From Phycisphaerae bacterium (GTDB taxonomy: Bacteria; Planctomycetota; Phycisphaerae; Phycisphaerales; SM1A02): a stretch of 64,000 bases of DNA. The translations under genes were made by a program, and so were the position numbers. Each line of letters begins with the position of its first letter. Positions within the stretch are counted from its first letter, which is position 1. The stretch covers positions 62,001-126,000 of the forward strand of contig PAQL01000015.1 of NCBI GenBank assembly GCA_002709295.1, in the 5' to 3' direction. Of the stretch, positions 7,178 through 28,376 are shown one piece after another. Below the pieces are notes generated by a model. That model was not told where the DNA came from, did no database searches, and worked only from the letters and a program-made list of their open reading frames with translations.

Positions 7178-7267
7178 CGGGGGCGGATCCGGCTGCGGGC
7201 GGGTTCGGCGGCGTACTCTACAGAAACCTGCGGGCCGACCCGTTGGATCCCATGGACCAGGATTCCC

Positions 7268-9205: not shown

Positions 9206-9729
9206 ATCGAGCGAGCGATCGAGCGAGCGATCGAGCGAGCGATCAAGCGAGCGGGCAGGCGAAGTCGATCCGATGCTCCCCGACGCCGGGGGGACGCCGC
9301 CGGATCCTGTCGCTGTCGATCGGACTGGGACTTCTCGCCTCCGCATGCGACCGTGGCGAGGAGGGTGTCGCGGCGGAGACGACCGCGGACATCGAATGGC
9401 GGGAGGCCGAGACCGCGGACGGCACCTGGCGGGTCGGCTGGCGTCCGCTGGCCGAACCGATCCCGACCCTCGATCCCTTCGCGGTCGAGGTCCGGGTGAG
9501 CGATCCCCGAGGCGACCTGCCGCCGGAGGGCACCACCATTCTCGTGGACGCCACGATGCCTCATCACGGCCACGGCATGAACGTCGTCCCCCGGATCCTC
9601 AGGCAGGGTGACGCCTGGATCGCGGAGGGGATGCTTCTTCACATGCCGGGTCGTTGGGAGTTCGTGGTCGACGTGGTTCGTGAACATGAATCGGAGCGGG
9701 CGCAGTGGACGCTCATGCTCGACCGGTGA
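9202..9729 (+). CDS. YtkA/FixH-like lipoprotein with repeat-coded n-region
   Basis: A 175-residue protein with a lipobox LASAC (Cys49) followed by a single YtkA-like beta-sandwich: DPFAVEVRVSD, the metal-ligand-like DATMPHHGHGMN, and GMLLHMPGRWEF. These methionine/histidine patterns occur in periplasmic copper or redox-associated proteins. The region before the hydrophobic stretch is unusually long (about 33 residues) and begins with RASD repeats encoded by four copies of a 12-base repeat; no later in-frame ATG or GTG precedes the lipobox. It overlaps the NHL gene by ATGA, and its TGA overlaps the peroxidase start (TGATG). It may act as a partner of the peroxidase; this is inferred from position. 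Confidence 0.8.
   Translation: MNRASDRASDRASDQASGQAKSIRCSPTPGGRRRILSLSIGLGLLASACDRGEEGVAAETTADIEWREAETADGTWRVGWRPLAEPIPTLDPFAVEVRVSDPRGDLPPEGTTILVDATMPHHGHGMNVVPRILRQGDAWIAEGMLLHMPGRWEFVVDVVREHESERAQWTLMLDR
9207..9254. repeat. 12-bp tandem repeat, four copies, inside a coding start
   Basis: Three identical copies of TCGAGCGAGCGA and a fourth diverged one (TCAAGCGAGCGG) lie immediately after the ATG of the YtkA-like lipoprotein and encode RASD/QAS repeats. The unit is a multiple of three, so copy changes keep the frame and only alter the length of the signal-peptide n-region. Confidence 0.9.
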
Positions 9730-11042
9730 TGAGCCGGCGACCGGTCATGGTCGGCCTGATGATCCTTGCCGCGGCGGGATGTGATCGTTCGTCGCCCTCC
9801 GGCACGACGACGAGGACCTCCACTCCGGAGGAGGTCGCGGTGCGGGTCGGGCTCGATGAAGCCGTGGTCCGAAGGGCGATGAGGGCTTCCCCGGTGCCGC
9901 CTCCGCCGGCGGATTCCACCAATCGCGTCGCGGACGATGCGACTGCGGCCGATTTCGGGCGAACCCTCTTCTTCGATCCCGGTCTGTCTGGACGCGGGGA
10001 TGTGAGTTGCGCCACCTGCCATCGGCCGGAGCTGCATTTCACGGATGGGCTGCCCCTGTCCCGGGGCGTCGCGACCGCGGGGCGGCACGCCCCGACCCTG
10101 GTCGATGCCGCGCACCAGCGCTGGTTCAACTGGGACGGACGAAGCGACTCGATGTGGGCCCACGCGATCCGTCCGATCGAACACCCGGACGAGATGGGGG
10201 GGGATCGGACCGCGGTGGTCCGTCATCTCCTCGAGGATCCGGAACGGCGGGCGACCTACGAGGCGATATTCGAGGATCCTCTTCCGGAACTCGATTCGCT
10301 CCCCGAACGGGCGAGGCCGGGGGGGAACGAGTCCGAACGCGAGGCCTGGGCGGCGATGCCGGAGGAGACCCGGCTGGGAATCGACCGGGTCGCGGCGAAC
10401 GTGGGCAAGGCGATGGCCGCGTATCAACGAACCCTGCAGGGCGGCACCTCGTCGTTCGACGACTGGGTCGCGGAGGTCGCGGCCGGCGGCGACGGGAGCG
10501 TCGCACTCGACCCCTCTCAGCGACGTGGCCTCGAGCTCTTCTTCGGGCGGGCCGAATGCTGGGAGTGCCATGCCGGACCGCTGTTCACCGACGGGGAATT
10601 CCACAACATCGGAACCCCGGTGCCGGGCGGATTGCCGAGGGATCCCGGCCGATACGACGGGGCGGCTCTGGTCGTCGACGACCGGTTCAACGCGGCGGGT
10701 CTGCACAGTGACGACCAAGAGGGGGCGCGGGCGATCGTGAGTCGGGGTGTGAAGCGGGATCCCTCCCAGTGGGGCGCCTTTCGGACACCATCCCTGAGGC
10801 ACGTGGGTCGAACCGCGCCGTACATGCACGACGGTTCGATGCCGGACCTGGAGACGGTGGTGCGGTTCTATTCGACGCTCGAGGGGGCCATCCAGCTCGA
10901 TCATCACCAGGAGTCGGTGCTCGCTCCGCTCGACCTCTCCGACGGGGAGATCGCCGATCTGGTCGCATTTCTTCGATCGCTCGACGGCGACATCGAGTTC
11001 GTCACTCCGGGGCCGTTGGCGTCCGATAACACCAAAGACTGA
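9729..11042 (+). CDS. Di-haem cytochrome c peroxidase (MauG/CcpA family) lipoprotein
   Basis: A 437-residue periplasmic enzyme with two c-type haem sites: C-x2-C-H at residues 94-98 (SCATCH) and at 277-281 (CWECH). FDPGLSGRGDVSC, a FNWDGRSDSMW stretch, NIGTPVPGG, FRTPSLRHVGRTAPYMHDGS and LDLSDGEIADLVAFLRSL are standard for this family, which reduces hydrogen peroxide or performs MauG-like oxidation. The start ATG 9729, overlapping the upstream TGA, gives a hydrophobic signal with lipobox AAAGC (Cys18), so it is probably lipid-anchored. It is last in the NHL / YtkA-like trio. The real electron donor is not identifiable here. Confidence 0.92.
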   Translation: MSRRPVMVGLMILAAAGCDRSSPSGTTTRTSTPEEVAVRVGLDEAVVRRAMRASPVPPPPADSTNRVADDATAADFGRTLFFDPGLSGRGDVSCATCHRPELHFTDGLPLSRGVATAGRHAPTLVDAAHQRWFNWDGRSDSMWAHAIRPIEHPDEMGGDRTAVVRHLLEDPERRATYEAIFEDPLPELDSLPERARPGGNESEREAWAAMPEETRLGIDRVAANVGKAMAAYQRTLQGGTSSFDDWVAEVAAGGDGSVALDPSQRRGLELFFGRAECWECHAGPLFTDGEFHNIGTPVPGGLPRDPGRYDGAALVVDDRFNAAGLHSDDQEGARAIVSRGVKRDPSQWGAFRTPSLRHVGRTAPYMHDGSMPDLETVVRFYSTLEGAIQLDHHQESVLAPLDLSDGEIADLVAFLRSLDGDIEFVTPGPLASDNTKD

Positions 11043-13809: not shown

Positions 13810-14655
13810 ATGATTGCAGAGTCCAGATTCACACTCACCGTGTCCCACGCCGCGGCCTTCGGCGCCCTCCTCGTCACCATGTCCGGCTGTTGCTGGTCTC
13901 GTGAGAAGGCCGGTGACGATCTGGCCGAAGCGACCCCGCCCGTCTCAACGATCGCCACGGTGGACGTCGAGGGTGGGCCGATCACGGTGCCGATCGAGGG
14001 TACGAGCGTGGAGCTCGAGATGATGCCGGTCAACGGTGCCCCCGGAGGCGGGTTCTACGCCGCCACCACCGAGGTGAGCTGGGACCTCTACGACGCATTC
14101 ATCTTCAACCTCGACACCGACGCCGGCGGCAGCACTCCGGAATCGGATGCGGTGACCCGTCCGAGCAAGCCCTACGTCCTGGTCGATCGTGGCTACGGGC
14201 ATGCCGGATACGCGGCGCTGAGCATCAGTCCGAAGGCGGCCGAACAGCTGGCCGAATGGCTGACGGTCAAGACCGGTCGCCGGTTCCGGATCCCCACCGA
14301 GGCGGAGCTCTCGCACCTGATCGCCACCAGCGGCGTGGCCGACGGCGAGGCGCGGCTCGTTCACGGATGGTTCGCGGAGAACTCCGACTACACCACGCAC
14401 GCGATCGGCTCGCTTCCCGCCGATGCCAACGGTCTGCACGACGTGTGGGGCAACGTCAGCGAGTACGCGATCATGCCCGACGGGACGTACGTCGTGATGG
14501 GGGGCTCGTTCATCGACGAGGTCGCCGACGTCGATGGCTCCCTTCGCATCCCGTTCACGCCCCAGTGGAACGCGGACGATCCTCAGATCCCCAAGAGCCC
14601 GTGGTGGCTCGCATCAAACGACTGGGTCGGTGTGCGGATGGTCTGCGATCCCTGA
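13810..14655 (+). CDS. Lipoprotein with formylglycine-generating-enzyme (SUMF1) fold
   Basis: A 281-residue protein with lipobox MSGC around residue 27, followed by a sulfatase-modifying-factor type fold: GGGFYAATTEVSWDLYDAFI, LSISPKAAEQLAEWL, GRRFRIPTEAELSHLI, NANGLHDVWGNVSEY and a final WVGVRMVCDP. True FGE enzymes carry a catalytic Cys pair; here only one Cys lies near the C-terminus, so an enzymatic role is doubtful and a binding or structural role is as likely. ATG 13810 is the start that yields the signal sequence; an open frame further upstream crosses the terminator. It precedes the sugar oxidoreductase genes by 63 bases and may be cotranscribed. Confidence 0.8.
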   Translation: MIAESRFTLTVSHAAAFGALLVTMSGCCWSREKAGDDLAEATPPVSTIATVDVEGGPITVPIEGTSVELEMMPVNGAPGGGFYAATTEVSWDLYDAFIFNLDTDAGGSTPESDAVTRPSKPYVLVDRGYGHAGYAALSISPKAAEQLAEWLTVKTGRRFRIPTEAELSHLIATSGVADGEARLVHGWFAENSDYTTHAIGSLPADANGLHDVWGNVSEYAIMPDGTYVVMGGSFIDEVADVDGSLRIPFTPQWNADDPQIPKSPWWLASNDWVGVRMVCDP

Positions 14656-14718: not shown

Positions 14719-16029
14719 ATGAGCAGTGAGAACACCGTCGACAACGCCCCTTCCCGTCGTGAGTTCGTGAAGGGCACCGCAGCGCTGGGCGCGGGAAGCG
14801 TCGCGGGTCTCGCGATGCCGGTCTGGGGTTCCCTTCCGGCCAGCGGCCGCCTCAAGGTCGGTCTGGTGGGGTGCGGTGGTCGTGGCACCGGAGCCGCCAA
14901 CCAGGCGATCAACGCGGATCCCGGCGTCCTTCTCTGGGCGATGGGCGACGTCTACTCCGACCGTCTCCAGGGCAGCCTCGGCGGGTTGAAGCAGCAGCAC
15001 GGCAACCGGGTCATGGTCGACGAGTCGCGGCAGTTCGTCGGTTTCGACGCCATCGACAAGGTTCTCGACAGCGGCGTCGACGTGATCATCCTCGCCACCC
15101 CTCCCGGCTTCCGACCGGACCACCTCGAGCGTTCGGTCAATGCCGGAACCCACGTCTTCTGCGAGAAGCCGATGGCCACCGACATGCCGGGGCTCCGCCG
15201 GGTCATGGCCAGTGCGAAGAAGGCGAAGGAGCAGGGCACCCAGCTCATGTCCGGCTTCTGCTGGCGGTACTCGATGCCCGAGCGGGCGATGTACGGCGAG
15301 ATCAACGACGGGGCCCTCGGCGAGATCGAGTCGGTCCATTCGACCTATCACACCGGTCCCCTCGGCACGCGTCCCCGCACCGAGGACATGACCGACATGG
15401 ACTTCGAGCTTCGCAACTGGCAGCACTTCAACTGGCTCAGCGGCGACATCATCGTCGAGCAGGCGGTCCACAGCGTGGACAAGATGAACTGGGCGATGAA
15501 CAACGTGCCGCCGGCACGGGCCACCGCGATGGCGGGCCGGGGTCTTCGCAAGGGCCCCGAACGCGGCGACGTGTTCGACCACTTCGCGGTGATCTACGAA
15601 TGGGACAACGGGGCCCGCGGGTTCCTCACCTGTCGTCAGCAGCCCAACTGCTCCAACGACAACAGCGACTGGGTCGCGGGCACCAGGGGCATCGGGAAGA
15701 TCAACGGATGGGCGCCGCGGACCTCGAACCTCAAGTTCGCAGACGGCTCCAAGGAGTTCCGGTACAAGGGCGGCACCCCGAGCATGTACCAGACCGAGCA
15801 CAATGAACTGTTCAAGGCGATCCGTGACGGCGAGCTGATCAACGACGGCGACTGGATGACCCAGTCCTGCGCCATGGGCATCATGGGTCGAGAGGCCGGG
15901 TACAGCGGGCGGACGATCACCTGGGACGAGATCATGAACTCCGAACGGGAGATCGTGCCCGCGAAGCCGGCGTTCGGCGATCGGCCCGCGATCGAGATCG
16001 CCGTCCCGGGTGTCTACCAGTTCAGTTGA
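14719..16029 (+). CDS. Tat-exported Gfo/Idh/MocA family oxidoreductase (copy 1)
   Basis: A 436-residue NAD(P)-dependent oxidoreductase with a twin-arginine signal (SRREFVKGTAALGAGS). The Rossmann loop is VGCGGRGTG, and the family EKP motif is present (CEKPMATDM); a conserved H-S-V-D-K-MNWAMN segment lies in the substrate half. Members oxidise sugars, inositols or glycosides at a secondary hydroxyl; the actual substrate is unknown. The Tat signal implies the folded enzyme with bound cofactor is moved to the periplasm. It is followed by a TIM-barrel isomerase, and the pair is repeated downstream. TTGGAG lies 10-15 bases before ATG. Confidence 0.88.
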   Translation: MSSENTVDNAPSRREFVKGTAALGAGSVAGLAMPVWGSLPASGRLKVGLVGCGGRGTGAANQAINADPGVLLWAMGDVYSDRLQGSLGGLKQQHGNRVMVDESRQFVGFDAIDKVLDSGVDVIILATPPGFRPDHLERSVNAGTHVFCEKPMATDMPGLRRVMASAKKAKEQGTQLMSGFCWRYSMPERAMYGEINDGALGEIESVHSTYHTGPLGTRPRTEDMTDMDFELRNWQHFNWLSGDIIVEQAVHSVDKMNWAMNNVPPARATAMAGRGLRKGPERGDVFDHFAVIYEWDNGARGFLTCRQQPNCSNDNSDWVAGTRGIGKINGWAPRTSNLKFADGSKEFRYKGGTPSMYQTEHNELFKAIRDGELINDGDWMTQSCAMGIMGREAGYSGRTITWDEIMNSEREIVPAKPAFGDRPAIEIAVPGVYQFS

Positions 16030-16096
16030 TTCCAAGTTCAGTGGCTCCGGTCGTGCGGCCGGGCATTCGATCCGGGCGACTTCTGGAGCATCAGGG

Positions 16097-16996
16097 ATGC
16101 CGAGACACCTCGCTGTGCTGGTCGGAATCGGACTGGCGATCGTCGCTGCCGCGACGGAACCGGTCCGGGCGGAGGAGCGTGCGGTGAAGAAGGCCGTCAA
16201 GATCGAGATGGTCGCCGACGGCGAGACGCTCGAGGAGAAGTTCGCTCTTCTCAAGGAGCTGGGATTCGACGGCGTCGAACTGCCCAGCCCCAACGGATGG
16301 ACCGTCGAGGAGGTGGTTGCGGCGCGTGATGCGACCGGTCTTCCCGTCCACGGCGTGGTCTGCAGCGAGCACTGGAAGAGTCCCCTGAACCATCCCGACC
16401 CCGCGGTGCGGGACCGGTGCGTGGCCGCGATCCGCGAGGCGATCTCCGACGCCGCCGCCTACGGCGCCTCCTCGGTGCTGGTGGTTCCGGCCGTCGTGAA
16501 CAAGTCGATGCCGTACGACGACGCATGGAGACTCTCCCGGGAATCGATCGCCCGGATCGTCCCCGAGGCGGAGCGGGCGGGCATCGACATCGCCTTCGAG
16601 AACGTCTGGAACAACTTCCTCCTGAGCCCTCGAGAAGCGGCGGACTACGTCGACTCCTTCGAAAGCGAACGGGTGGGCTGGTACTTCGACGTCGGAAACC
16701 TGGTGGCCTACGGCTGGCCGGAGCAGTGGATCCGGGTGCTGGGGCCGAGGATCATGAAGATCGACGTCAAGGAGTACAGTCGAAAGAAGCTCGACGACGA
16801 GGGCCGCTGGGCTGGTTTCAGCGTCAAGCTGACCGAGGGGGACTGCGACTGGCCTTCAGTGATGAAGGCGCTGGACGACGTCGGATACGAGGGATGGATG
16901 ACCGCGGAGATCCAGGGGGGGGACAGGGTCTGGCTGGAGGATGTCGCAGCCAGGATGGACCGTATCGCCGCTTCCGGCGAGTCCGAGTCGAAGTGA
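16097..16996 (+). CDS. Exported sugar phosphate isomerase/epimerase (TIM barrel)
   Basis: A 299-residue AP-endonuclease-2-like (xylose isomerase-like) TIM barrel with an N-terminal signal peptide (MPRHLAVLVGIGLAIVAAAT). Barrel signatures include ELGFDGVELPSPNGW, VLVVPAVVNKSM, IDIAFENVWNNFL, GWYFDVGNLVAYG and GWMTAEIQGGD, which carry the metal-ligand Glu, His/Asp and Glu positions of the family. It probably isomerises or epimerises a keto-sugar made by the neighbouring oxidoreductase. ATG 16097 follows CTGGAG; a start at 16010 is in frame but would delete the signal-like N-terminus. The spacing to neighbours is about 65 bases on both sides. Confidence 0.85.
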   Translation: MPRHLAVLVGIGLAIVAAATEPVRAEERAVKKAVKIEMVADGETLEEKFALLKELGFDGVELPSPNGWTVEEVVAARDATGLPVHGVVCSEHWKSPLNHPDPAVRDRCVAAIREAISDAAAYGASSVLVVPAVVNKSMPYDDAWRLSRESIARIVPEAERAGIDIAFENVWNNFLLSPREAADYVDSFESERVGWYFDVGNLVAYGWPEQWIRVLGPRIMKIDVKEYSRKKLDDEGRWAGFSVKLTEGDCDWPSVMKALDDVGYEGWMTAEIQGGDRVWLEDVAARMDRIAASGESESK

Positions 16997-17060
16997 CCAC
17001 CAACCCCGGCGGCACCCCGCCGGACACCGGCCGGAACCTCGGCCAAGAATTGGAGATTCG

Positions 17061-18377
<1,317 letters not shown>

Positions 18378-18378
18378 C

Positions 18379-19308
18379 ATGGGTTCCGACACCACCAGCA
18401 GGCGAGGTTTCATCGGTGCCGCGGGAGCGGCTGCGGCGGTGGGTGCCTCGCTTCCCTCGGCCGCCGAGGCGGCCGGGCGTCAGGATGCCGGCGCCTTCAA
18501 ACTCGACTACGCCCCGCACTTCGGGATGTTCAACGCGGTCAGCGGTGATGATCGGCTCGACCAGATCCGTTACGCCCACGACCAGGGCTTCCGGTCCTGG
18601 GAGGACAACGGCATGCCCGGCCGCTCGCCCGAGGAGCAGACGAGGATCGGCGACGAGCTCCGTCGACTCGGCATGAGGATGGGCGTGTTCGTCTCCGAGG
18701 CGGACTTCGGCAACGAGACCTTCGTGCTCCCTTTCGATCGGCAGCGTGACCGGCTGAAGAAGAAGATGGAGGACGCCATCGAGGTGGCGGGCCGTTGCGG
18801 GGCCAGGTGGACCACGGTCGTGCCCGGCCGCTACTCGCAGCGACTGGCTCCGGACTTCCAGACCGCCAACTGCATCGACAACCTCAGGTTCTGTGCCGAG
18901 ATCCTCGAGCCCCACGACATCGTGATGGTGCTCGAGCCTCTGAACCGACGCGATCATCCGGGCCTCTTCCTCACCGGGGTCCCGCAGGCCTATCAGATCT
19001 GTCGTGCGGTCGGCAGTCCGTCGTGTCGGATCCTCGACGATCTCTACCACCAGCAGATCACCGAGGGGAATCTGATTCCCTACATGGATGCGGCGTGGAG
19101 CGAGATCGACTACATCCAGGTCGGCGACAATCCCGGGCGACGTGAACCCACCACCGGCGAGATCGACTATCGCAACATCTTCCGACATCTCCATGGCAGG
19201 AACTTCAAGGGGATCGTGGGCATGGAGCACGGCATGAGCCGCGGGGGCAGGGAGGGCGTCGAGCGACTCGTCGCCGCCTATCGAGAGTGCGACGACTTCA
19301 GGGATTGA
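18379..19308 (+). CDS. Tat-exported hydroxypyruvate-isomerase-like TIM barrel
   Basis: A 309-residue isomerase with a Tat signal (SRRGFIGAAGAAAAVG). The barrel is hydroxypyruvate-isomerase-like: FKLDYAPHFGMFNAV, HDQGFRSWEDNGMPG, RMGVFVSEADFG, IVMVLEPLNRRDHPGLFL, CRILDDLYHQQITEGNL and YIQVGDNPGRREPTTGEI, with the Glu and Asp metal ligands in the expected positions. It probably interconverts a keto-acid or keto-sugar produced by copy 2. It starts one base after that gene ends and overlaps the next gene by 22 bases. Confidence 0.88.
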   Translation: MGSDTTSRRGFIGAAGAAAAVGASLPSAAEAAGRQDAGAFKLDYAPHFGMFNAVSGDDRLDQIRYAHDQGFRSWEDNGMPGRSPEEQTRIGDELRRLGMRMGVFVSEADFGNETFVLPFDRQRDRLKKKMEDAIEVAGRCGARWTTVVPGRYSQRLAPDFQTANCIDNLRFCAEILEPHDIVMVLEPLNRRDHPGLFLTGVPQAYQICRAVGSPSCRILDDLYHQQITEGNLIPYMDAAWSEIDYIQVGDNPGRREPTTGEIDYRNIFRHLHGRNFKGIVGMEHGMSRGGREGVERLVAAYRECDDFRD

Positions 19309-21137
19309 TCCTCGCCGTCGTGTTCATGGCGCCGTTCTCGTGCGCCTCGACCGGCACTGATGACCACCTCCGAGCCGACCTGATGAAGGTCACGGACCGG
19401 CGGATCGTCATGGGCGTGGAATCGAGGATCGTCACCTGGGCGCCGTCCGAGACGATCGCGAGGGAGGCGACCCGGGCCGCGTTCGCCCGGATGGCCGCTC
19501 TCGAGCAGGCGATCAGCGACCATCGGTCGCGAAGCGAATCGATGATCGCGGTCGAGTCGGTGGGGGAACCGGTCCCGATCTCCGAGGACTTCGCCCTGGC
19601 GATGTCGCGGTCACGGGTCTGGCGTCATCGATCAGGGGGTGCGTTCGACCCCACGATCGGACCGTTGACCGCACTGTGGCGCGACTCCCGCCGTTCGGGA
19701 AGGACGCCGGCGGCTCGTGACGTCGAGTTCGCGGCAACCACGGTCGGCTGGTCGAAGCTGGATTTCGACGAGCAGGCTCGCACGATCGAGTTCCTCACGG
19801 CGGCGATGCGGCTCGACTTCGGTGGCATCGGGAAGGGGCTGGCCGCCGACCTCGCCCTCGAGACGATGCGTGCCCATGGCCTGCCGCGAACGCTGATCGA
19901 GGTCGGTGGGGACCTCGTGGCCGGTTCGCCTCCACCGGGCCGGACGGGTTGGAAGGTCCGGATAGAGACCGTGCCCTGGGACGACGAGGTCGAGATGGAG
20001 CTTGCCGATGCGGCGATCGCGACCAGCGGCGACGTGGAGCAGTTCCTCGAGGTCGAGGAGGACGGCGCCATGGTCAGGCTCGGGCATCTGCTCGATCCGA
20101 GGACCGGTCGACCGATCCGCACCCGACGCGAGGCGACTGCCATCGTGCGCGGTGGCGGTGCGTTCAACGGTGCCGACGCGGATGCGCTCGCGAGCGTGGG
20201 GGTGGTCCTCGGGTTGCGAGGCGCCGCGCGGGTCGCGGACGGCACCCTGGACGCGGAACTCCGTGTGGTCGAGGCCTCCCGCCGGGACGCCGACGGATCG
20301 ACGCCCGACGGCTGGCGGGTCGAGAGACTTCGCATCGCGTCCGATCCCGCCTGGGCGGGTGAATGCGATGTCGAAGTCGTCTGCGACGGCTTCGCATTCA
20401 CCGAAGGGCCGGTGGTTCGAGCGGATGGATCGGTCTGGTTCACGGATCAGCCGAACGACCGGATCGTGCGATGGTCGCCGGAGAACGGCTGCGAGACGGT
20501 GATCCAACCGGCGCTCCGGGCGAACGGCCTGGCCGTGGACGGGGAGGGCCGTCTCATCGCCTGTGCCGAGGCGAGGAACGAACTCGTCGGCTTCGAAGCC
20601 GATGGCAGGGTCATCGTCCTGGCGACCGGCGAGGGAGCGCCATTCAACGGGCCGAACGATCTCTGGACGGCACCGGACGACTCGATCTGGTTCACCGATC
20701 CCTGGTACCGGCGATCGTGGCACGAGGGGGACGAGCCTCGGCGTTCCCCCGCGGTCCACCGTCGTCTCCCCGACGGCGTGATCCACGAGGTGGCCGGGGA
20801 CTTCGGCCGGCCGAACGGGATCGTCGGAACTCCGGACGGAGAAACCCTCTACGTCGCGGACATCGATCGTGATCGACTCTGGTCGTACCCGATCGAGGGA
20901 GGGAGGACGCTGGGGCCGCGTCGCATGGTGGTGCCGATCGGTTCGGACGGCATGGCGATCGCCGAGGATGGCATGGTGCTCCTGACCGGACGGGGCGTGT
21001 TCGTGGTGGACCCGGAACGACGAGCCTTGATCCGCACTCTCGTTCCCGACGAGTCATGGTGCGCGAACGTGGCGGTGGGAGAGGGCGGCATCTGGATCAC
21101 GGCCGGAGACCGTCTGCTCCGCATCCACGCCCCCTGA
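19287..21137 (+). CDS. ApbE-like flavin transferase fused to SMP-30/gluconolactonase
   Basis: A 616-residue exported protein. Residues about 25-345 match ApbE (FAD:protein FMN transferase): the GGAFDPTIGPLTALW block, DFGGIGKGLAADLALE, IEVGGDLVAG and DLADAAIATSGDVEQFLE then GHLLDPRTGRPI, the Thr/Asp-rich FAD and Mg sites. Residues about 360-616 are an SMP-30/gluconolactonase six-blade propeller (CDGFAFTEGPVVRADGSVWFTDQP, FNGPNDLWTAPDDSIWFTDPW, GRPNGIVGTPDGETLYVADID). ApbE flavinylates proteins such as Rnf/Nqr subunits; SMP-30 hydrolyses sugar lactones. The GTG start at 19287 overlaps the preceding gene by 22 bases. The N-terminus is a weak signal with PFSC, an imperfect lipobox. A frameshift joining two genes is not suggested by the sequence. 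Confidence 0.82.
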   Translation: MRRLQGLILAVVFMAPFSCASTGTDDHLRADLMKVTDRRIVMGVESRIVTWAPSETIAREATRAAFARMAALEQAISDHRSRSESMIAVESVGEPVPISEDFALAMSRSRVWRHRSGGAFDPTIGPLTALWRDSRRSGRTPAARDVEFAATTVGWSKLDFDEQARTIEFLTAAMRLDFGGIGKGLAADLALETMRAHGLPRTLIEVGGDLVAGSPPPGRTGWKVRIETVPWDDEVEMELADAAIATSGDVEQFLEVEEDGAMVRLGHLLDPRTGRPIRTRREATAIVRGGGAFNGADADALASVGVVLGLRGAARVADGTLDAELRVVEASRRDADGSTPDGWRVERLRIASDPAWAGECDVEVVCDGFAFTEGPVVRADGSVWFTDQPNDRIVRWSPENGCETVIQPALRANGLAVDGEGRLIACAEARNELVGFEADGRVIVLATGEGAPFNGPNDLWTAPDDSIWFTDPWYRRSWHEGDEPRRSPAVHRRLPDGVIHEVAGDFGRPNGIVGTPDGETLYVADIDRDRLWSYPIEGGRTLGPRRMVVPIGSDGMAIAEDGMVLLTGRGVFVVDPERRALIRTLVPDESWCANVAVGEGGIWITAGDRLLRIHAP

Positions 21138-21247: not shown

Positions 21248-22648
21248 TCAGGGCATCGCATTCTTCGCCGCCTTGAACGCCTCGATGGCGCGGACTCGCG
21301 CCTGCTTCAAGTCGACCACCGGCGGTCGGGCGGTGCCGTCGAGGTGTTCCGGAGCCCAGCGACGGATGTAGTCGCCCTTCGGATCGAAGCGGTCCCGTTG
21401 CGTGTCGGGGTTGAACACCCGGAAGTAGGGGGCGGCGTCGGTGCCGGTCGAGGCCGCCCACTGCCAGCCGCCGTTGTTGCTGGGGAAGTCGGCATCCGCC
21501 AGCGAACGGAGGAAGAACCGCTCCCCCTTCCGCCAGTCCACGAGGAGATGCTTGGTGAGGAAGGTGGCCACGATCATGCGCCCCCGGTTGTGCATCCAGC
21601 CGGTCTTCGCGAGCTGGTGCATGCCGGCATCGACGATGGCGATCCCGGTCCGTCCCTCCCGCCAGAGGTCGAACGCGTCCGCGTCATCGTTCCAGGCGAC
21701 CCGGTCGGTCCAGCCGTGCAGCGGACGGTCCATGGAAAGCCTGGGGATCCCGTCCATCGCATGCCGGTAGAACTCCCTCCAGACGAGTTCGCTCAGCCAG
21801 GTGGCCGGCCCCTCGGACCATCCGGAGGGATCGGATCCGAACCGTTCGACCATCGCGTGCAGAGCGCGACGTGGGGAGAGGCTTCCGCACGCCAGCCAGG
21901 GGGAGAGCGTGCTGGTTCCGTCGAGGGCGGGAGGATCCCGGTCGTCGTGGTAGGTCTCGACCGGACCATCCAGGAAGCGTTGGAGTCTGCGACGGGGTTC
22001 GTCCTCCCCGGGGGGGAAGTCGCCGGAAGGATGCCGTCCGGTGAACGCCTCCGTGGTGATCTCGCCGTCGAGGACGCCGACCTCGACGTCGACTCCGGAG
22101 GCCGGCGGGGCGACGGGTGCGGGAATCCCCGATGCCGCCAGCAGCTTCAACCATGTCCGCTTGAAGGGGGTGAAGACGGTGTAGGGGGTGCCTCCGCCCG
22201 AGCGGATGTCGCGGACGGGCAGGATGACCTGGTTCTCATGTTCGACGAGCACACGGCCGTCCCGCCCGAGTGCGGCAGCGACCGCCTCGTCACGGCGGGT
22301 CTCGTCGATTCCGAACTCGCGTCCGACATGGACCTCGTCGGCCCCCATGCGTTCCGCGATTCCAGCGACCGTCGCGGCCACGTCCCGGTCACTCTCCACC
22401 TCCACCACTCGAAGGGCGAGGCCGCGATCCGCGAGTTCCGACTGCAGGGCGGCGATCCCGCCTGCGATCATCGCAAGGCGTGGCGATCCCAGATGGTGTC
22501 TCTCCCATGTTTCCGGGGTGACGAGGAACAGGGGGAGGCAGCCGCCCTCGCCGCGGCTCATCGCGGCATGCAGCACCGGCTGGTCGTCGATCCGAAGATC
22601 GTCGCGGAACCAGGCGATCGTGCGGCGAGGTTGGGAGATCGAGGTCAT
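21248..22648 (-). CDS. phrB: Class I CPD photolyase
   Basis: A 466-residue light-driven enzyme that splits cyclobutane pyrimidine dimers using FADH- and an antenna. The N-terminal Rossmann half starts IAWFRDDLRIDDQPVL. The catalytic half has WLSELVWREFYRHAM with the conserved Glu and Trp, GWMHNRGRMIVATFLTKHLL, and NNGGWQWAASTG at residues 391 onward. This last motif carries the Asn next to flavin N5 and the proximal Trp of the electron-transfer triad, consistent with an active photolyase. It is the last gene of the leftward island; the FAD oxidoreductase upstream ends nine bases before it. Confidence 0.95.
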   Translation of the reverse strand: MTSISQPRRTIAWFRDDLRIDDQPVLHAAMSRGEGGCLPLFLVTPETWERHHLGSPRLAMIAGGIAALQSELADRGLALRVVEVESDRDVAATVAGIAERMGADEVHVGREFGIDETRRDEAVAAALGRDGRVLVEHENQVILPVRDIRSGGGTPYTVFTPFKRTWLKLLAASGIPAPVAPPASGVDVEVGVLDGEITTEAFTGRHPSGDFPPGEDEPRRRLQRFLDGPVETYHDDRDPPALDGTSTLSPWLACGSLSPRRALHAMVERFGSDPSGWSEGPATWLSELVWREFYRHAMDGIPRLSMDRPLHGWTDRVAWNDDADAFDLWREGRTGIAIVDAGMHQLAKTGWMHNRGRMIVATFLTKHLLVDWRKGERFFLRSLADADFPSNNGGWQWAASTGTDAAPYFRVFNPDTQRDRFDPKGDYIRRWAPEHLDGTARPPVVDLKQARVRAIEAFKAAKNAMP

Positions 22649-22657
22649 GCGGGCGAC

Positions 22658-23878
22658 TCACTCATCGATGAGTTCGCGGGCGGTCTCGATGCCGATTCGG
22701 ACCGAGTTCTCGATCGAGGGGTCGTCCATCCAGTCTCCGGCGATTCGAATGCCCGGCGGAGCGTGCCTGTCTGGAGCCGATCCGGGTCGGGGGAGGGCAT
22801 GGGGGACGTTGGTGGTGATCAGATGTCGCCAGCCGCCGCCGTCGACTCCGAGGAGATCCGCGGCCTCTGCACGGATGGCGTCCGGATCGATGTCCGCGGC
22901 GTCGCGGTGGCCGGGACGCAGGCTCACCAGGACCGAATGGGTGCCTGCGGGAGCGATGCCGGGAGCGACTTCGCTGGGACTGCAAACGAGATTGACCTGT
23001 CCACGGCCCCGCCCGTCGAGCACGATGATCGGTTCCTCGATCACCCGATCCGTGGAGGCGAAGTGGACCGCGGTGGTGCCGGACCATCCCTCGGTGCTCG
23101 AAGGCGAAGTTCCGCCCAGCAGGCGTGCAGTCACGTCGAAGGGGGTCGCCAGGACGATCTCGGCGGCCTCGAGTCGACTTCCATCCTCGAGGACGACTTC
23201 ACCGGGGACGACGGAGGCCACGGTGGATTCCAGTCGGATGTCCCCCTCGATCGGAGCGGCGAGGGCGTCTGCGAGCGACTGCATGCCGCCGGCGGGCAGC
23301 TCCGCCGAACCCGTGGCGAAGCGGTGCAGCGTGCGAAGGAAGCGATCCGCCGGCACGTCGAGGTCCTCGTCGAGCATCACGCCTCCGAAGAACGGACGGA
23401 GGAACGATTCGGTGAAACCGGACGAGAACCCGGCGGACTCGATGCAGGACATGCCCGTGCCGTTCGCGTGGCCGCCCGCCGAGACCGCGGCCGCCGCTCG
23501 ACGGCAACGAAGCGCGGCCCGGAGATCACGGAATCTCGCGAGTCCGCTCCACCAGGCCTTCAGCCCGGCGAGAGGTTCGCGTCCGGGATCCACCATTCGA
23601 ATCCGTCTGTCCTCGGTCACCACGATCGCCCCGGAGGTGAAGGCGTGCCGGGGCGCGGCGTTCCTCGGAGCGAGTTCCTCGAGCGTGGTGTAGTTCGACA
23701 TGGAGACCTGGAAGCCCAGATCGCAGACGATCCCCTCGACCACGGTGCTGCCGAGACGGCCTCCGACCCTCGAGGACGATTCGATGACCGTCACGTCCCG
23801 CCCGGCATCCCGAAGGGTCCTTGCACAGGCGAGCCCGGTGGGGCCGGCTCCGACGATCAGGACTGGGGGGTTCGACAT
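22658..23878 (-). CDS. FAD-dependent amine-oxidase-like protein
   Basis: A 406-residue flavoprotein with an N-terminal dinucleotide fold, VLIVGAGPTGLACARTLRDAG near residues 6-26, followed by ESSSRVGGRLGS (the second FAD contact) and a C-terminal GIRIAGDWMDDPSIENSV FAD-binding motif. It resembles protoporphyrinogen-oxidase-like or monoamine-oxidase-like NAD(P)/FAD proteins that are frequent beside photolyase genes. The substrate is unknown. ATG 23878 is preferred because it lies next to the fold; an in-frame start at 23893 (MDDRG) adds five residues. It starts 31 bases after folE and lies nine bases upstream of phrB. Confidence 0.85.
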   Translation of the reverse strand: MSNPPVLIVGAGPTGLACARTLRDAGRDVTVIESSSRVGGRLGSTVVEGIVCDLGFQVSMSNYTTLEELAPRNAAPRHAFTSGAIVVTEDRRIRMVDPGREPLAGLKAWWSGLARFRDLRAALRCRRAAAAVSAGGHANGTGMSCIESAGFSSGFTESFLRPFFGGVMLDEDLDVPADRFLRTLHRFATGSAELPAGGMQSLADALAAPIEGDIRLESTVASVVPGEVVLEDGSRLEAAEIVLATPFDVTARLLGGTSPSSTEGWSGTTAVHFASTDRVIEEPIIVLDGRGRGQVNLVCSPSEVAPGIAPAGTHSVLVSLRPGHRDAADIDPDAIRAEAADLLGVDGGGWRHLITTNVPHALPRPGSAPDRHAPPGIRIAGDWMDDPSIENSVRIGIETARELIDE

Positions 23879-23909
23879 GCCGCGATCATCCACGCCCGGA
23901 GCCGGTTCA

Positions 23910-24635
23910 TCAACCCGACCCGGTCATGATGTCCTGGATCTCCCGCCGTCCGGCGGCGTCCCGGACCCACAGGCCGCCGGCCGAGCGGGTCCTCATGACC
24001 GAACCGCAGCTCTTCACCCCTCTCAGCTGCATGCAGGAATGGGTGGCCTCGACCATCACCAGGCACGCGGCGGGCCGGAGATGCTCCTCGATGGCCTCGC
24101 GGATCTGTCTCGTCAATCGCTCCTGCTGCTGGGGTCGCCGGGCGAGGATCTGCACCGTTCTGGCGAGCTTGGAAAGACCGACCACCCGGTCGTGCTGGGG
24201 CTGATAGGCCACGTGCGCCACGCCGGTGAACGGCAGGAGATGGTGTTCGCACATGCTGGTGAAGGGAATGTCGCTGAGCATCACAGGATCGTTGCCGTCC
24301 TGGTCGAACTGTCTCGCCAGGTGCACGCCGGGATCCTCGCTGATGCCGCCGAAGAGTTCGCCGTAGGCCTTCGCCACGCGGCGCGGCGTGTCGAGAAGTC
24401 CCTCGCGATCGGGATCCTCGCCGATGCCCAGGAGGATCTCCCGGACCGCGTTCCGGATGCGGGGAAGATCGAAACCGGATTCGTCGGTGTCTCCGGTGTC
24501 GACCTCGTCGTGGGGTCTGAGGTCATGAATCACGCGAGCATTCCTTGCATGGGGAGTTGGAGTTGCTGACGGGAGAGGTTTCGAGGAAGCCTTGATCCGG
24601 GATTCGCACATCGGGACGACTTTTCGAGCGGGCAT
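23910..24635 (-). CDS. folE: GTP cyclohydrolase I
   Basis: Converts GTP to 7,8-dihydroneopterin triphosphate, the first step to folates and pterins, as a toroidal homodecamer. The zinc site is intact: Cys129 and His132 in MCEHHLLPF, and Cys201 in THSCMQLRG. The catalytic core is complete, and the length is 241 residues from ATG 24635, with a disordered 45-residue N-terminus; a second in-frame ATG at 24611 gives 233. Its position between photolyase and flavoprotein genes suggests a supply of pterin or folate (for example, a methenyl-THF antenna) for the photolyases; that is inference. Confidence 0.94.
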   Translation of the reverse strand: MPARKVVPMCESRIKASSKPLPSATPTPHARNARVIHDLRPHDEVDTGDTDESGFDLPRIRNAVREILLGIGEDPDREGLLDTPRRVAKAYGELFGGISEDPGVHLARQFDQDGNDPVMLSDIPFTSMCEHHLLPFTGVAHVAYQPQHDRVVGLSKLARTVQILARRPQQQERLTRQIREAIEEHLRPAACLVMVEATHSCMQLRGVKSCGSVMRTRSAGGLWVRDAAGRREIQDIMTGSG

Positions 24636-24640
24636 GGTGT

Positions 24641-25021
24641 TCAGTCCCTGACGAGACGGATCTGAAAGGATCCCCGCGCCCGATCCGGATCCACCACCCG
24701 GCGACCCTGCATCATCACGACCCGTTCCTGATCCACCAGTCGTCGCACCGCTCTTCGGACCGGCTCGAGCCCGGACTTCCAGTTCTCCGGATCGATGCGT
24801 CGAGCGACATCGGTGAGGCATATCGAATCGGAGGGACCTCGGCCTCGAAGCATGTCGATCACGGTCTTCTCGATGCTTCGATCACGATCGCGCACCGGAT
24901 GACTTCGACAGGCCTTCGAGCAGTGCAGGACCGAATCCCAGTCCCTGGCCCACTTCTTCCGCCAGGTGAAGGAGCGGCCGCAGGTCACGCAGACGCGGGT
25001 TGGCAGGGGGGATCGTCTCAT
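24641..25021 (-). CDS. DUF2256/DUF3253-like small zinc-ribbon protein
   Basis: A 126-residue protein. Its N-terminus is a treble-clef-like DUF2256 motif with cysteines 11, 14, 34 and 38: C-V-T-CGRSFTWRKKW followed by C-S-K-A-C. Residues 47-126 form a small winged-helix-like domain of the DUF3253 type (IEKTVIDMLRGRGPSD, LTDVARRID, VRRAVRRLVDQERVV, MQGRRVVDPD). DUF2256 proteins have been noted as neighbours of cryptochrome/photolyase genes; their function is unknown. The ATG (25019-25021) overlaps the upstream gene's TGA (ATGA), and only five bases separate it from folE. Confidence 0.85.
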   Translation of the reverse strand: MRRSPLPTRVCVTCGRSFTWRKKWARDWDSVLHCSKACRSHPVRDRDRSIEKTVIDMLRGRGPSDSICLTDVARRIDPENWKSGLEPVRRAVRRLVDQERVVMMQGRRVVDPDRARGSFQIRLVRD

Positions 25022-27486
25022 GCGTCCTGGAACAGGGTGCCGGCGGCGGCATCGACCCGCGAGGCCCCGAGATCCCTGAGGATGCATCCAGCGGCGGCGA
25101 TGCCGCTCTCGATCGCGTGCTCGACCCGGTTGCCGAGGCACCAGTCGCCGCAGACGGCCAGGGATCGGTCCGCCGATCGGAGGTGATCGACGCCCGCGGG
25201 CCTGGAGACCAGCGAGAACCGCCATCGGTGTGCATCCCCGGGTGGGACCTCGCATCCGAGGATCCTTGCCGTGATCTCGCGGAGGAGTGGTTCGACCTCC
25301 TTGCGGTCCAGTTCGAGATGTCGTCGGGTCCAGTCCGGTGTCGCGTGCATGGTCCAGGCGCCGTGATCGTCCCGTCCCGGACGGCTGGCCTCGCGACAGA
25401 GCCAGCTGACGTCGGGGTCGGGGTCGGTCGCGACGTCGAAGCCCGGGTCGACCTCCACGCCATGGGTCATGAGCGTCCACGTGGGGTCGAAGTCCACCGC
25501 ACTCATGGTCCGGATCATCTCCGCGTCGATGGTCCGGCCCGGGTCTTCCACCAGGGGCTCCAGCAGACGCCGGGCCTGGGGTGCGGGGAGGGCGAGGACC
25601 ATGCGGCGGGCGGATTCGATGCGCTCGCCGTTCTCGTCGAGGGCGTGCCAGCCGTCGTCATGTCTCCGGATCGCGGCGACCGCATGGCCGAAGCGGACCC
25701 GCAGGTCGGACTGCAGATGTGCCACCAGTCCCTTCATCCCCGAGGTCCCGACGTACCAGTCGTCGGCGGGCGGTCGCACGGTGCCGTCGATCAGCCTGAC
25801 GCGTGGTCGCCATTCAGTGACGACACCGTCCCGGATCCAGCTCTCGGTGAGGGGGCGACGATGATCGCCGCGAAGGCGCAGCACCTGGCAGCCGTGGTCG
25901 TGCGCGACACGACGGCCCTCTCCCCGGCGTCGGGTGCTGGACCGTCCGCCCGGACCTCGTCCCTTGTCGAGCAGCACCACGTCGTGGCCGTGATCCAGCA
26001 GGGTCCTCGCGGCCATCGATCCGGCGACACCGGCTCCGACGACCAGGACCCGGTCTCTGGAGATGTGGCCGCGGATTCGATGGCGCAGTCGGTCCGGATC
26101 GAGACGTCGCGCGTGTGCGGCGGTCGGTCGGGTTCGAAGGGAGCCGGTCACCGGACGGTCCTCGGGGAACGGACGATCGAAGAGACCGAGGCACCACAGA
26201 AGGCCGCCGATCGAGTTCGGATCCCGTCCGTCGAGGGCGTAGCGATCGTTGAGATCGAGCAGTCTCTCGAGCATCTCAGGGGCATCGGCGCACCATTCGA
26301 GGATCGCCTTGCCCCAGGTCATGCGAAGATTGTTGTGCAGCCAGCCGCGTTCCCGCAGGGAGCTCTGTGCGAGATCCCACAGTCCGTCGCCGGTCCGGCT
26401 CCGGGACATCGCCTCCCATGATCGCATCGAGCGGGGATCATTCCGGTGCGCCTCCAGGGTCCTCCTCGCCCAGGCGGGCACGGCGCCGATGCGGTCGTGG
26501 CCGGGCTCGGTCCGGCAGAAGTGATGGGAGAGCTCCCGCCAGACCAGCAGCTCGTCGAGGAACTTGTCGCACCCGTCGCCGCCTCGGGCGGCAGCCTCCC
26601 TCGCCATTCGGAAGGGGGAGATCGATCCATGATGGATCCAGGGTGAGAGCCCGCTGGTCCCGTCGTCGGTGGCATCGTTTCTTCGGCGGTGGTAGCGGTC
26701 GATGTCCGTCTCGAGGAACCGGTTCCAGCGGGCGCGGGCTTCAGCCTCCCCGCCGTTCATCCCCGGGACCGGGCCGACCGAGTGGTCGACCGGCCAGGAC
26801 CCGACGAGGTCGCGGAGGTCCTGATCGGATCGGCCCATGAGATCGAGGGCTCCCGGCGGCAGGTCGGCCTCTCCGGCCACGGGTGCCTCCAGTCCGCAGG
26901 CCGGCCACTCGCGGTGGATCCTCGCGTTCCATCCGGACTCGCAGGCGCTTCGGAACTTGAAGGCCCGATCATGGATCCCCTGCACCATCCGGCCCGGCAG
27001 GACGCAGGAGGCGTCGACCGCGATCACGGGGCCGTGGACATGGGCCGCGATGGCCCGCGTCCAGGCGGGATAGGGGTTGCGGGGGTGGTCCTCGGTCACC
27101 AGCATGCGGGCTCGTCCGGCAAGGTGCCGCAGGCCGCTGGTGCCACCGGAGTCCGGGGGCGTGATCGACATGGCGATGCCACGTTCTCGAAGATCTGCCT
27201 GGAGTCCGGCCCATCCCTGAAGCATGAAGAGGGTCTGGCGGTCGTTGGCGAAGTCGTGACGGCCGCCGAAGCCGGCGTGGACCACCAGCGGGGAGTTGGT
27301 CGACCTCGCCGCGTGGCAGGCGACCTCGAGCACCGGGTTCTCGTCGATGCGGCAGGCATGATGCAGCCATGCGACGACCACCGGTGAGGGTGGTGGGGCT
27401 CCGGTGCTTCCCTCGGAGATCGCCGCGCATCGTTCCGCGAGGTGGTCGGGCAGGCCGAGCCTGAGAATGGTCCCGTGATCGCTCAA
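25018..27486 (-). CDS. Class II-like photolyase fused to a renalase-like flavin oxidoreductase
   Basis: An 822-residue fusion. Residues about 35-470 form a photolyase/cryptochrome fold (VVAWLHHACRIDENPVLE, DELLVWRELSHHFC, GWLHNNLRMTWGKAILEW, ALDGRDPNSIGGLLWCLG), closest by eye to class II photolyases. Residues 480-822 are an FAD/NAD(P) oxidoreductase of the renalase type: VVGAGVAGSMAARTLLDHG (GxGxxG at 484-489), LDKGRGPGGRSSTRR, GTSGMKGLVAHL and a final VCGDWCLGNRVEHAIESG. TTG 27486 is chosen because it overlaps the SDR stop (TTGA) and leaves a short N-terminal tail; GTG 27381 is an alternative starting at VVVAW. Either order gives a two-flavin protein with light-linked potential. Confidence 0.75.
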   Translation of the reverse strand: MSDHGTILRLGLPDHLAERCAAISEGSTGAPPPSPVVVAWLHHACRIDENPVLEVACHAARSTNSPLVVHAGFGGRHDFANDRQTLFMLQGWAGLQADLRERGIAMSITPPDSGGTSGLRHLAGRARMLVTEDHPRNPYPAWTRAIAAHVHGPVIAVDASCVLPGRMVQGIHDRAFKFRSACESGWNARIHREWPACGLEAPVAGEADLPPGALDLMGRSDQDLRDLVGSWPVDHSVGPVPGMNGGEAEARARWNRFLETDIDRYHRRRNDATDDGTSGLSPWIHHGSISPFRMAREAAARGGDGCDKFLDELLVWRELSHHFCRTEPGHDRIGAVPAWARRTLEAHRNDPRSMRSWEAMSRSRTGDGLWDLAQSSLRERGWLHNNLRMTWGKAILEWCADAPEMLERLLDLNDRYALDGRDPNSIGGLLWCLGLFDRPFPEDRPVTGSLRTRPTAAHARRLDPDRLRHRIRGHISRDRVLVVGAGVAGSMAARTLLDHGHDVVLLDKGRGPGGRSSTRRRGEGRRVAHDHGCQVLRLRGDHRRPLTESWIRDGVVTEWRPRVRLIDGTVRPPADDWYVGTSGMKGLVAHLQSDLRVRFGHAVAAIRRHDDGWHALDENGERIESARRMVLALPAPQARRLLEPLVEDPGRTIDAEMIRTMSAVDFDPTWTLMTHGVEVDPGFDVATDPDPDVSWLCREASRPGRDDHGAWTMHATPDWTRRHLELDRKEVEPLLREITARILGCEVPPGDAHRWRFSLVSRPAGVDHLRSADRSLAVCGDWCLGNRVEHAIESGIAAAGCILRDLGASRVDAAAGTLFQDA

Positions 27487-28229
27487 CCGGATCGGACCCG
27501 ACTGAGGCCGCCGTCGACGCCGATCACCTGTCCGGTGATCCAGCCCGAATCCTCGGTGGCCAGCCACTCGATCGCGGGTGAGACGTCTTCCGGGGTCCCG
27601 ATCCTGCCGAGGGGGTGCATCTTCCGGGAGTGCTCGAGGGCCCGCTCGCTGGAGGTGATCCTCGATGCCATCGGCGTGTCCACCAGCGCCGGTGCCACGA
27701 CGTTGACGCGGAGCCCCCGACCGGCGTAGGTCGCGGCGGCCGACCGGGCAAGGCCCTCCACACCGGCTCCCGCCGCGGCGATCGCCTCGTGGTTCGCGAG
27801 GCCGATGCCCGCGGCCACCGTTGACACCAGCACCACGCTTCCGCCTTCCTTCATGTGCCTTCCGGCGCTTCGCACGCAGGTGAAGGCGGTCGTCAGCTTC
27901 TGGGCGATCGTGTCGTTCCAGGTCTTCTCGTCGATCAGATGAGCCGGCTTCAGCGTGATGCATCCGGCGAGATTGATGATGGCCCCGAGGGGCGGACGCT
28001 CGGGGTCCTCGACGATCGAGCGGACCACCTCGTCCAGATCCTCGAAGGAGGTCGCGTCGCAGACCCGCCGCTCGTCCAGACCCTCGACCTCGTTCAGGCG
28101 ATCCTGGTTCCGGCCTATTCCCACCATGGCGAATCCCCGCCCCGACAACCGCCGAACCACGCTCCGTCCGATGCCGCCTCCGGCGCCGACCACCAGTGCG
28201 GTGGCGGGCCGGTCTTCGTGACCATTCAT
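27483..28229 (-). CDS. SDR-family protein with a degenerate active site
   Basis: A 248-residue short-chain dehydrogenase fold. The cofactor loop is intact (VVGAGGGIGRSVVRRL, GAGGGIG), as are INLAGC and DDNNG-like elements and VDTPMA and GQVIGVDGG near the end. The stretch SSV/ STVAAGIGLANHEAIAAAGAGVEGL aligns with the usual S...YxxxK region, but both the catalytic Tyr (here Ile) and Lys (here Gly) appear replaced. It may bind NAD(P) without classic dehydrogenase chemistry. It is the first leftward gene of the island and diverges from the cryptochrome gene across 147 bases. ATG 28229 is chosen near the fold; a longer start at 28352 is less likely. Confidence 0.82.
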   Translation of the reverse strand: MNGHEDRPATALVVGAGGGIGRSVVRRLSGRGFAMVGIGRNQDRLNEVEGLDERRVCDATSFEDLDEVVRSIVEDPERPPLGAIINLAGCITLKPAHLIDEKTWNDTIAQKLTTAFTCVRSAGRHMKEGGSVVLVSTVAAGIGLANHEAIAAAGAGVEGLARSAAATYAGRGLRVNVVAPALVDTPMASRITSSERALEHSRKMHPLGRIGTPEDVSPAIEWLATEDSGWITGQVIGVDGGLSRVRSG

Positions 28230-28376
28230 CCGATTCACGGGCAGGATTCCTTCCTCGATGCTGACGCCATGGACTTCGACGACCCTGTCGGGACCCGACG
28301 TTCGATTCCGTCTTCGTCCGTCGTCGCGGAAGGTTTCATCCGGATTGGTCACGAACTATCCCGTCGGAGGGTGGCG

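What the first reader, a model, noticed from the sequence alone, without database searches (positions are those of the whole stretch)
19287..21137. ApbE flavin transferase fused to a gluconolactonase-type propeller
Both halves have their signature motifs (DFGGIGKGLAAD, ATSGD, DPRTGRP; then GFAFTEGPV and GPNDLWTAPDDSIWFTDPW). ApbE normally flavinylates electron-transport proteins; linking it to a lactonase at the end of a sugar-oxidation operon hints at a flavinylated sugar-oxidising system in the periplasm.
Basis: partly seen in the sequence, partly recalled or inferred. Interest (0 to 1): 0.65.

Follow-up and report, generated by a model that had tools for sequence, protein, structure and literature searches.

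The report
Flavin transferase–lactonase fusion in sugar-oxidation operon
A real single gene joins an exported flavin-attaching enzyme (ApbE) to a sugar-lactone-opening enzyme; the fusion is a recent local event, but the ApbE part belongs to an older, order-wide partnership with an exported sugar-oxidation gene cluster in bacteria that mostly lack every known target of ApbE.

Summary
Window 19287-21137 (+) is one 616-aa ORF with an exported ApbE domain (residues 42-319) and a complete SMP-30/gluconolactonase propeller (371-598). The fusion, with no stop at the junction, recurs in 9 of 181 genomes of the same family (two genera), in the same gene context wherever read, so it is not an assembly or sequencing artefact. 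The stated refuter was not found: relatives have either the fusion or ApbE alone, never a separate lactonase beside it.

The gene ends a run of exported proteins: diheme cytochrome, LVIVD protein, SUMF1-like lipoprotein, Gfo/Idh-A, TIM barrel, Gfo/Idh-B, TIM barrel, then ApbE-lactonase. Unfused ApbEs of the same clade sit beside the same cluster across the order. ApbE-cluster coupling is therefore older than the fusion. Yet this genome has no FMN_bind, DUF2271 or DUF3570 protein, and no cluster protein carries a conserved flavinylation motif. The target, if any, is unknown.

Best reading: a lineage-specific enzyme fusion serving an exported sugar-oxidation route, with an 'orphan' ApbE that points to an unrecognised substrate or a flavin-trafficking role. 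It is a new variant of a known kind.

The parts
19287..21137 (+). fused gene ApbE::SMP-30/gluconolactonase, 616 aa, GTG start
   Evidence: relatives
19287..19349 (+). N-terminal signal sequence MRRLQGLILAVVFMAPFSC (lipoprotein-like but weak lipobox; relatives L016/L153 show a Sec-type signal)
   Evidence: read from sequence; no signal-peptide predictor was available
19410..20243 (+). ApbE (FAD:protein FMN transferase) domain, residues 42-319
   Evidence: PF02424 1.5e-52; PF02424 181.7 bits in the genome search; active-site columns
20244..20396 (+). linker, low model confidence, present in all fused relatives aligned
20397..21080 (+). SMP-30/gluconolactonase six-bladed propeller, residues 371-598; putative metal ligands E373, N457, N510, D554 invariant in the fused proteins aligned
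   Evidence: PF08450 2.6e-27; alignment; 3e5z alignment
18379..19308 (+). TIM2, exported (Tat-type) xylose-isomerase-like TIM barrel; overlaps the fusion gene by 22 nt
16941..18377 (+). GfoB, Gfo/Idh/MocA oxidoreductase with Tat-type signal (true start may be internal)
16010..16996 (+). TIM1, exported xylose-isomerase-like TIM barrel
14719..16029 (+). GfoA, Gfo/Idh/MocA oxidoreductase with Tat-type signal
13810..14655 (+). SUMF1/FGE-sulfatase-like secreted lipoprotein, conserved beside the cluster in 32 of 59 ApbE loci
   Evidence: PF03781 23.5 bits, just over cut-off; relative L099 69 bits
11291..13549 (+). secreted LVIVD-type protein with dockerin-like C-terminus (window copy: dockerin only, below Pfam cut-off; LVIVD called in relative L111)
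9705..11042 (+). MauG/CCP-type diheme cytochrome c peroxidase, same position upstream of the cluster in 4 relatives
   Evidence: PF03150 9.6e-38

Best explanation
This is a two-domain exported enzyme at the end of an exported sugar-oxidation operon. Shown: the fusion is real and arose once, in a lineage whose ApbE was already linked to a conserved cluster (SUMF1-like lipoprotein, GfoA, TIM1, GfoB, TIM2, in some genomes preceded by an LVIVD protein and a diheme cytochrome c). Inferred: GfoA and GfoB are exported folded by Tat with bound NAD(P) and oxidise a sugar or glycoside outside the cytosol; the TIM barrels isomerise or epimerise the keto-sugar; the propeller hydrolyses a lactone made by the oxidation, as gluconolactonase does for the founding Gfo family member, glucose-fructose oxidoreductase. 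Inferred: the ApbE domain uses periplasmic FAD and Mg2+ to provide flavin for the same route, most likely by attaching FMN to an acceptor protein not yet recognised, so that Gfo-bound hydride can pass via flavin to cytochrome. The fusion would fix the lactonase to the same place and stoichiometry as ApbE.
For: Fusion without stop in 9 of 181 family genomes and two genera. Conserved synteny and 22-nt overlap. ApbE tree: a 44-row clade (100/97) of which 35 rows sit beside GfoA/B/TIM homologues; fused rows are one clade (100/97) whose sister (98/79) is G002, which has the same operon without the lactonase. ApbE lies divergent, convergent or co-directional to the cluster yet stays adjacent. Where present, GfoA/B-like copies number about two per genome, so adjacency is not explained by abundance. 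Co-occurrence in 37 genomes: all 28 with GfoB have ApbE (one as a contig-cut fusion) against 1 of 9 without (Fisher 2e-6 counting the cut copy as absent, not corrected for phylogeny). Conserved His base, Asp/Ser-Thr metal site and Lys; conserved lactonase ligands. TIM2 weakly resembles a 3-keto-D-glucoside 4-epimerase, 6wn6, E 4e-9.
Against: No known ApbE target family in the genome and no conserved target motif in the cluster. The Rossmann loop of the Gfo proteins reads TGAA, lacking the acceptor Ser/Thr. The window protein has His79 where other fused proteins have Tyr, at the residue that stacks on the isoalloxazine ring; Y60A and Y60N in the E. coli enzyme turn it into an FAD hydrolase (PMC4767422). 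Some clade members (for example L122, L124, L127) are not beside Gfo genes. Sugar substrates and lactone formation are not shown.
Confidence: 0.5

Rival explanations
1. The ApbE domain is not a protein flavinylator here but a periplasmic FAD pyrophosphatase or flavin-trafficking enzyme (like Treponema Ftp) that turns FAD into FMN and AMP for soluble use by the cluster's enzymes.
For: No target protein found. The window has His at the Y60 position, and loss of Tyr there gives FAD hydrolysis in E. coli Ftp (PMC4767422). Top structural matches include Treponema Ftp 4xdt/4xdr.
Against: Nine fused relatives keep Tyr, and unfused clade members keep Tyr or Trp, the FAD-binding pattern. No FMN-using partner is seen in the cluster.
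Confidence: 0.25
2. ApbE flavinylates an ordinary target elsewhere in the genome and its place by the Gfo cluster only reflects co-regulation. The lactonase fusion is a neutral read-through joining.
For: ApbE need not lie next to its target (own knowledge). The genome is 95% complete, so a target could lie in missing sequence.
Against: All three known target families are not detected and most relatives lack FMN_bind too. Co-occurrence with GfoA/B is near perfect. The fusion has stayed open at 53-57% identity with both active sites conserved.
Confidence: 0.15
3. The fusion is an assembly or sequencing artefact, or a wrong stop call at the junction.
For: The named relatives all come from metagenome bins.
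Against: Independent genomes, two genera, same architecture and synteny, no stops.
Confidence: 0.01

Closest known systems
ApbE / FAD:protein FMN transferase (E. coli and V. cholerae ApbE, Listeria FmnB, Pseudomonas stutzeri ApbE, Treponema Ftp)
   Same: domain, fold, His base, metal-site Asp and Ser/Thr, exported
   Different: C-terminal lactonase; no FMN_bind, DUF2271 or DUF3570 partner in the genome; partner cluster is Gfo/Idh-TIM; His at the isoalloxazine-stacking position in the window copy
SMP-30/gluconolactonase family (3e5z, 3dr2 XC5397, RPA3624 lactonase)
   Same: six-bladed propeller and conserved putative metal ligands
   Different: the relatives found outside the fused clade are stand-alone proteins; here fused behind ApbE
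ApbE fused to its substrate (ApbE-DUF2271; trypanosomatid ApbE-fumarate reductase; PMC8238504, PMC12052999)
   Same: ApbE joined to a second domain in one polypeptide
   Different: those partners carry the flavinylation site; the lactonase half carries no [ST]GA[ST] motif
Zymomonas glucose-fructose oxidoreductase plus gluconolactonase (own knowledge)
   Same: exported Gfo/Idh/MocA enzyme paired with a lactonase
   Different: no ApbE; the window Gfo proteins are only distant homologues, and GfoB's best PDB hits are inositol dehydrogenases

Membership tests
ApbE flavin transferase | PF02424 domain above cut-off, full length | tested here: met
   179 bits against cut-off 25.6
ApbE flavin transferase | catalytic His, metal-site Asp and Ser/Thr, conserved Lys | tested here: met
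ApbE flavin transferase | aromatic residue stacking on flavin (Tyr60 of E. coli) | tested here: inconclusive
   His79 in the window, Tyr in 9 other fused copies, Tyr or Trp in unfused clade members
ApbE flavin transferase | FMN transfer to a D-x-x-[ST]-G-A-[ST] target protein | tested here: inconclusive
   no FMN_bind, DUF2271 or DUF3570 in the genome; no conserved motif in the cluster; transfer itself needs an assay
SMP-30/gluconolactonase | PF08450 propeller above cut-off | tested here: met
   96 bits against cut-off 26.3
SMP-30/gluconolactonase | metal ligands Glu, Asn, Asn, Asp | tested here: met
   E373, N457, N510, D554 invariant in the fused proteins and aligned with 3e5z; ligand roles from own knowledge
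SMP-30/gluconolactonase | lactone hydrolysis | not testable with these tools
   needs assay
known flavinylation-based electron-transfer systems (RNF, NQR, NosR, EET, PepSY-like and others) | FMN_bind, DUF2271 or DUF3570 substrate in the genome | tested here: not met
   NqrB/RnfD-type PF03116 was not searched separately

The most novel reading that the evidence does not exclude
ApbE in this order is dedicated to exported Gfo/Idh/MocA sugar oxidation through a flavinylated protein of an unrecognised class (or a new use of ApbE), giving NAD(P)-bound periplasmic dehydrogenases a flavin link to cytochromes. The lactonase fusion physically marks that link.
Probability: 0.35. Interest if true: 0.72.

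Novelty: new variant of a known kind. Interest (0 to 1): 0.5.

Why it matters
About 4% of genomes in the 2021 survey were left as 'orphans', with an apbE but no known target (PMC8238504). Here much of an order carries such orphan ApbEs tied to one defined exported sugar-oxidation cluster, which gives a short list of partners in which to look for a new substrate or a new ApbE role. It would also address how periplasmic Gfo/Idh/MocA enzymes get rid of their electrons.

Tried and rejected
(1) Separate lactonase gene next to ApbE in relatives: not found in 61 genomes or in the loci read. (2) FMN_bind, DUF2271, DUF3570 as targets: not detected. (3) Flavinylation motif inside cluster proteins: only the Gfo Rossmann loop TGAA recurs, and it lacks the acceptor residue. 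(4) Genome-wide motif by DNA pattern: strict form 4 hits against 2 in the reversed control; loose form 108 against 50. Twenty loci were read: many hits lie in short or non-coding-like frames, and those in long frames are mostly internal to large proteins. (5) L190, an exported protein with DSITGAS right after its signal: homologues lack the motif, so rejected. (6) L158 DSSSGATST: in a shadow frame inside an SCO1-like gene. (8) My first query for the SUMF1-like gene used a wrong frame, corrected.

Full report
Observation. Window 19287-21137 (+) is one ORF of 616 aa with a GTG start. Pfam finds ApbE at 42-319 (1.5e-52) and SGL at 371-598 (2.6e-27). The closest solved proteins are flavin transferases (7esa, 5mgy, 1vrm, 4ifu) for the first half and gluconolactonases (3e5z, 3dr2) for the second. 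An AlphaFold model (mean pLDDT 79.7, pTM 0.54) shows both domains at high confidence with an uncertain stretch around 280-355. Foldseek matches each half to the same two families. The mutual orientation of the halves is not reliable.

Not an artefact. In 61 relatives the full-length match is found in G035, and in G001 up to a contig end. A scan of 84,980 species' genomes gave four full-length fused loci plus the cut one, all Phycisphaerales or Phycisphaerae MAGs. In the window's family 9 of 181 genomes carry the fusion, in 2 of 45 genera, and no match contains a stop.

Context. Upstream on the same strand lie TIM2 (18379-19308), GfoB (16941-18377), TIM1 (16010-16996), GfoA (14719-16029), a SUMF1-like lipoprotein (13810-14655), an LVIVD/dockerin secreted protein (11291-13549) and a MauG/CCP diheme cytochrome (9705-11042). 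By inspection all carry export signals; GfoA, GfoB and TIM2 carry twin-arginine-type ones. The ApbE gene overlaps TIM2 by 22 nt at the same codons in the fused relatives and in the unfused G002. A photolyase block follows on the other strand, also conserved.

The older partnership. I fetched the surroundings of ApbE genes in the relatives. Of 59 ApbE loci (including the window), 37 have strong GfoA, GfoB or TIM homologues within 7.5 kb and 32 have the SUMF1-like gene. Gene order is conserved, while ApbE itself may be divergent, convergent or co-directional. Where present, GfoA/B-like genes number about two per genome, so this is not a by-product of an abundant family. In 37 genomes, all 28 with GfoB have ApbE (one seen only as the cut fusion) against 1 of 9 without. 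Fisher's test gives 2e-6 with the cut copy counted as absent; it ignores phylogeny, and most of the genomes without come from two families. A maximum-likelihood tree puts the cluster-linked ApbEs in one clade of 44 rows (100/97), with the fused ones as one clade inside it (100/97) and G002's unfused ApbE as sister (98/79). The lactonase was therefore gained by an ApbE already tied to the cluster (or gained slightly earlier and lost in G002).

Catalytic state. The His base, metal Asp, Ser/Thr and Lys are conserved in the fused clade. The residue that stacks on the flavin ring is Tyr in nine other fused copies, Tyr or Trp in unfused clade members, but His79 in the window (numbering inferred from the 2o18 and 5mgy alignments). 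In E. coli Ftp, Y60A and Y60N convert the enzyme to FAD hydrolysis (PMC4767422), so the window copy might lean that way. The lactonase's putative metal ligands E373, N457, N510 and D554 are conserved.

Missing target. Meheust and colleagues list FMN_bind, DUF2271 and DUF3570 as substrates and note that 4% of genomes remain orphans (PMC8238504). Here FMN_bind is absent from the own genome and from 51 of 61 genomes searched, DUF2271 from all 61 and DUF3570 from the own genome. Aligned cluster proteins have no conserved [ST]GA[ST]; the Gfo Rossmann loop reads TGAA. Genome-wide pattern hits were near chance in the strict form, and those read were in unlikely frames, inside large proteins, or (L190) not conserved. 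The own genome's only detected ApbE is the fused one.

Interpretation. Shown: the fusion, its spread, its single origin on the tree, and the ApbE-Gfo cluster link. Inferred from family knowledge: exported Gfo enzymes oxidise a sugar, TIM barrels rearrange it (TIM2 weakly resembles a 3-keto-D-glucoside 4-epimerase), the propeller opens a lactone, and ApbE supplies flavin. Whether ApbE attaches FMN to an unknown protein or only processes FAD is open. I rate the first at about 0.5 and the second at 0.25.

Novelty. No paper in the open library holds both 'ApbE' and 'gluconolactonase'. The eLife survey's text has no mention of Gfo, lactonase or planctomycetes, and the 2024 survey has none of Gfo, MocA or planctomycetes. 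Subscription papers and domain-architecture databases could not be checked. Both domains are ordinary; the architecture and the partner cluster are the new part.

Noticed in passing
L141:6709-11000, L137:5744-10155; also L133, L135, L110, L119, L140, L143: A second, separate ApbE clade, without a signal peptide in the two read in full, lies between two Gfo/Idh genes with Tat-type signals and upstream of a membrane protein with one CxxCH heme motif; a similar ApbE-Gfo layout occurs in L020 (record titled Chthonomonas). It is another ApbE-Gfo link.
   Followed up: partly
window 25018-27963 (-): ORF with a photolyase-like N-terminal part and a renalase-like FAD amine-oxidase C-terminal part in one frame; possible fusion.
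   Followed up: no
window 21248-29939: Light-repair block: two clear photolyases, FAD amine oxidase, GTP cyclohydrolase I, a DUF2256-DUF3253 protein and a short-chain dehydrogenase; part of it is syntenic with the fused gene in relatives.
   Followed up: no
window 5609-9346 (-): 1245-aa ORF whose C-terminal third is a CitMHS_2 transporter; the N-terminal 800 residues have no Pfam match and may be a wrong start.
   Followed up: no
window 13810-14655 (+) and relatives: SUMF1-like secreted lipoprotein kept beside the Gfo cluster in 32 of 59 ApbE loci; its role there is unexplained.
   Followed up: partly
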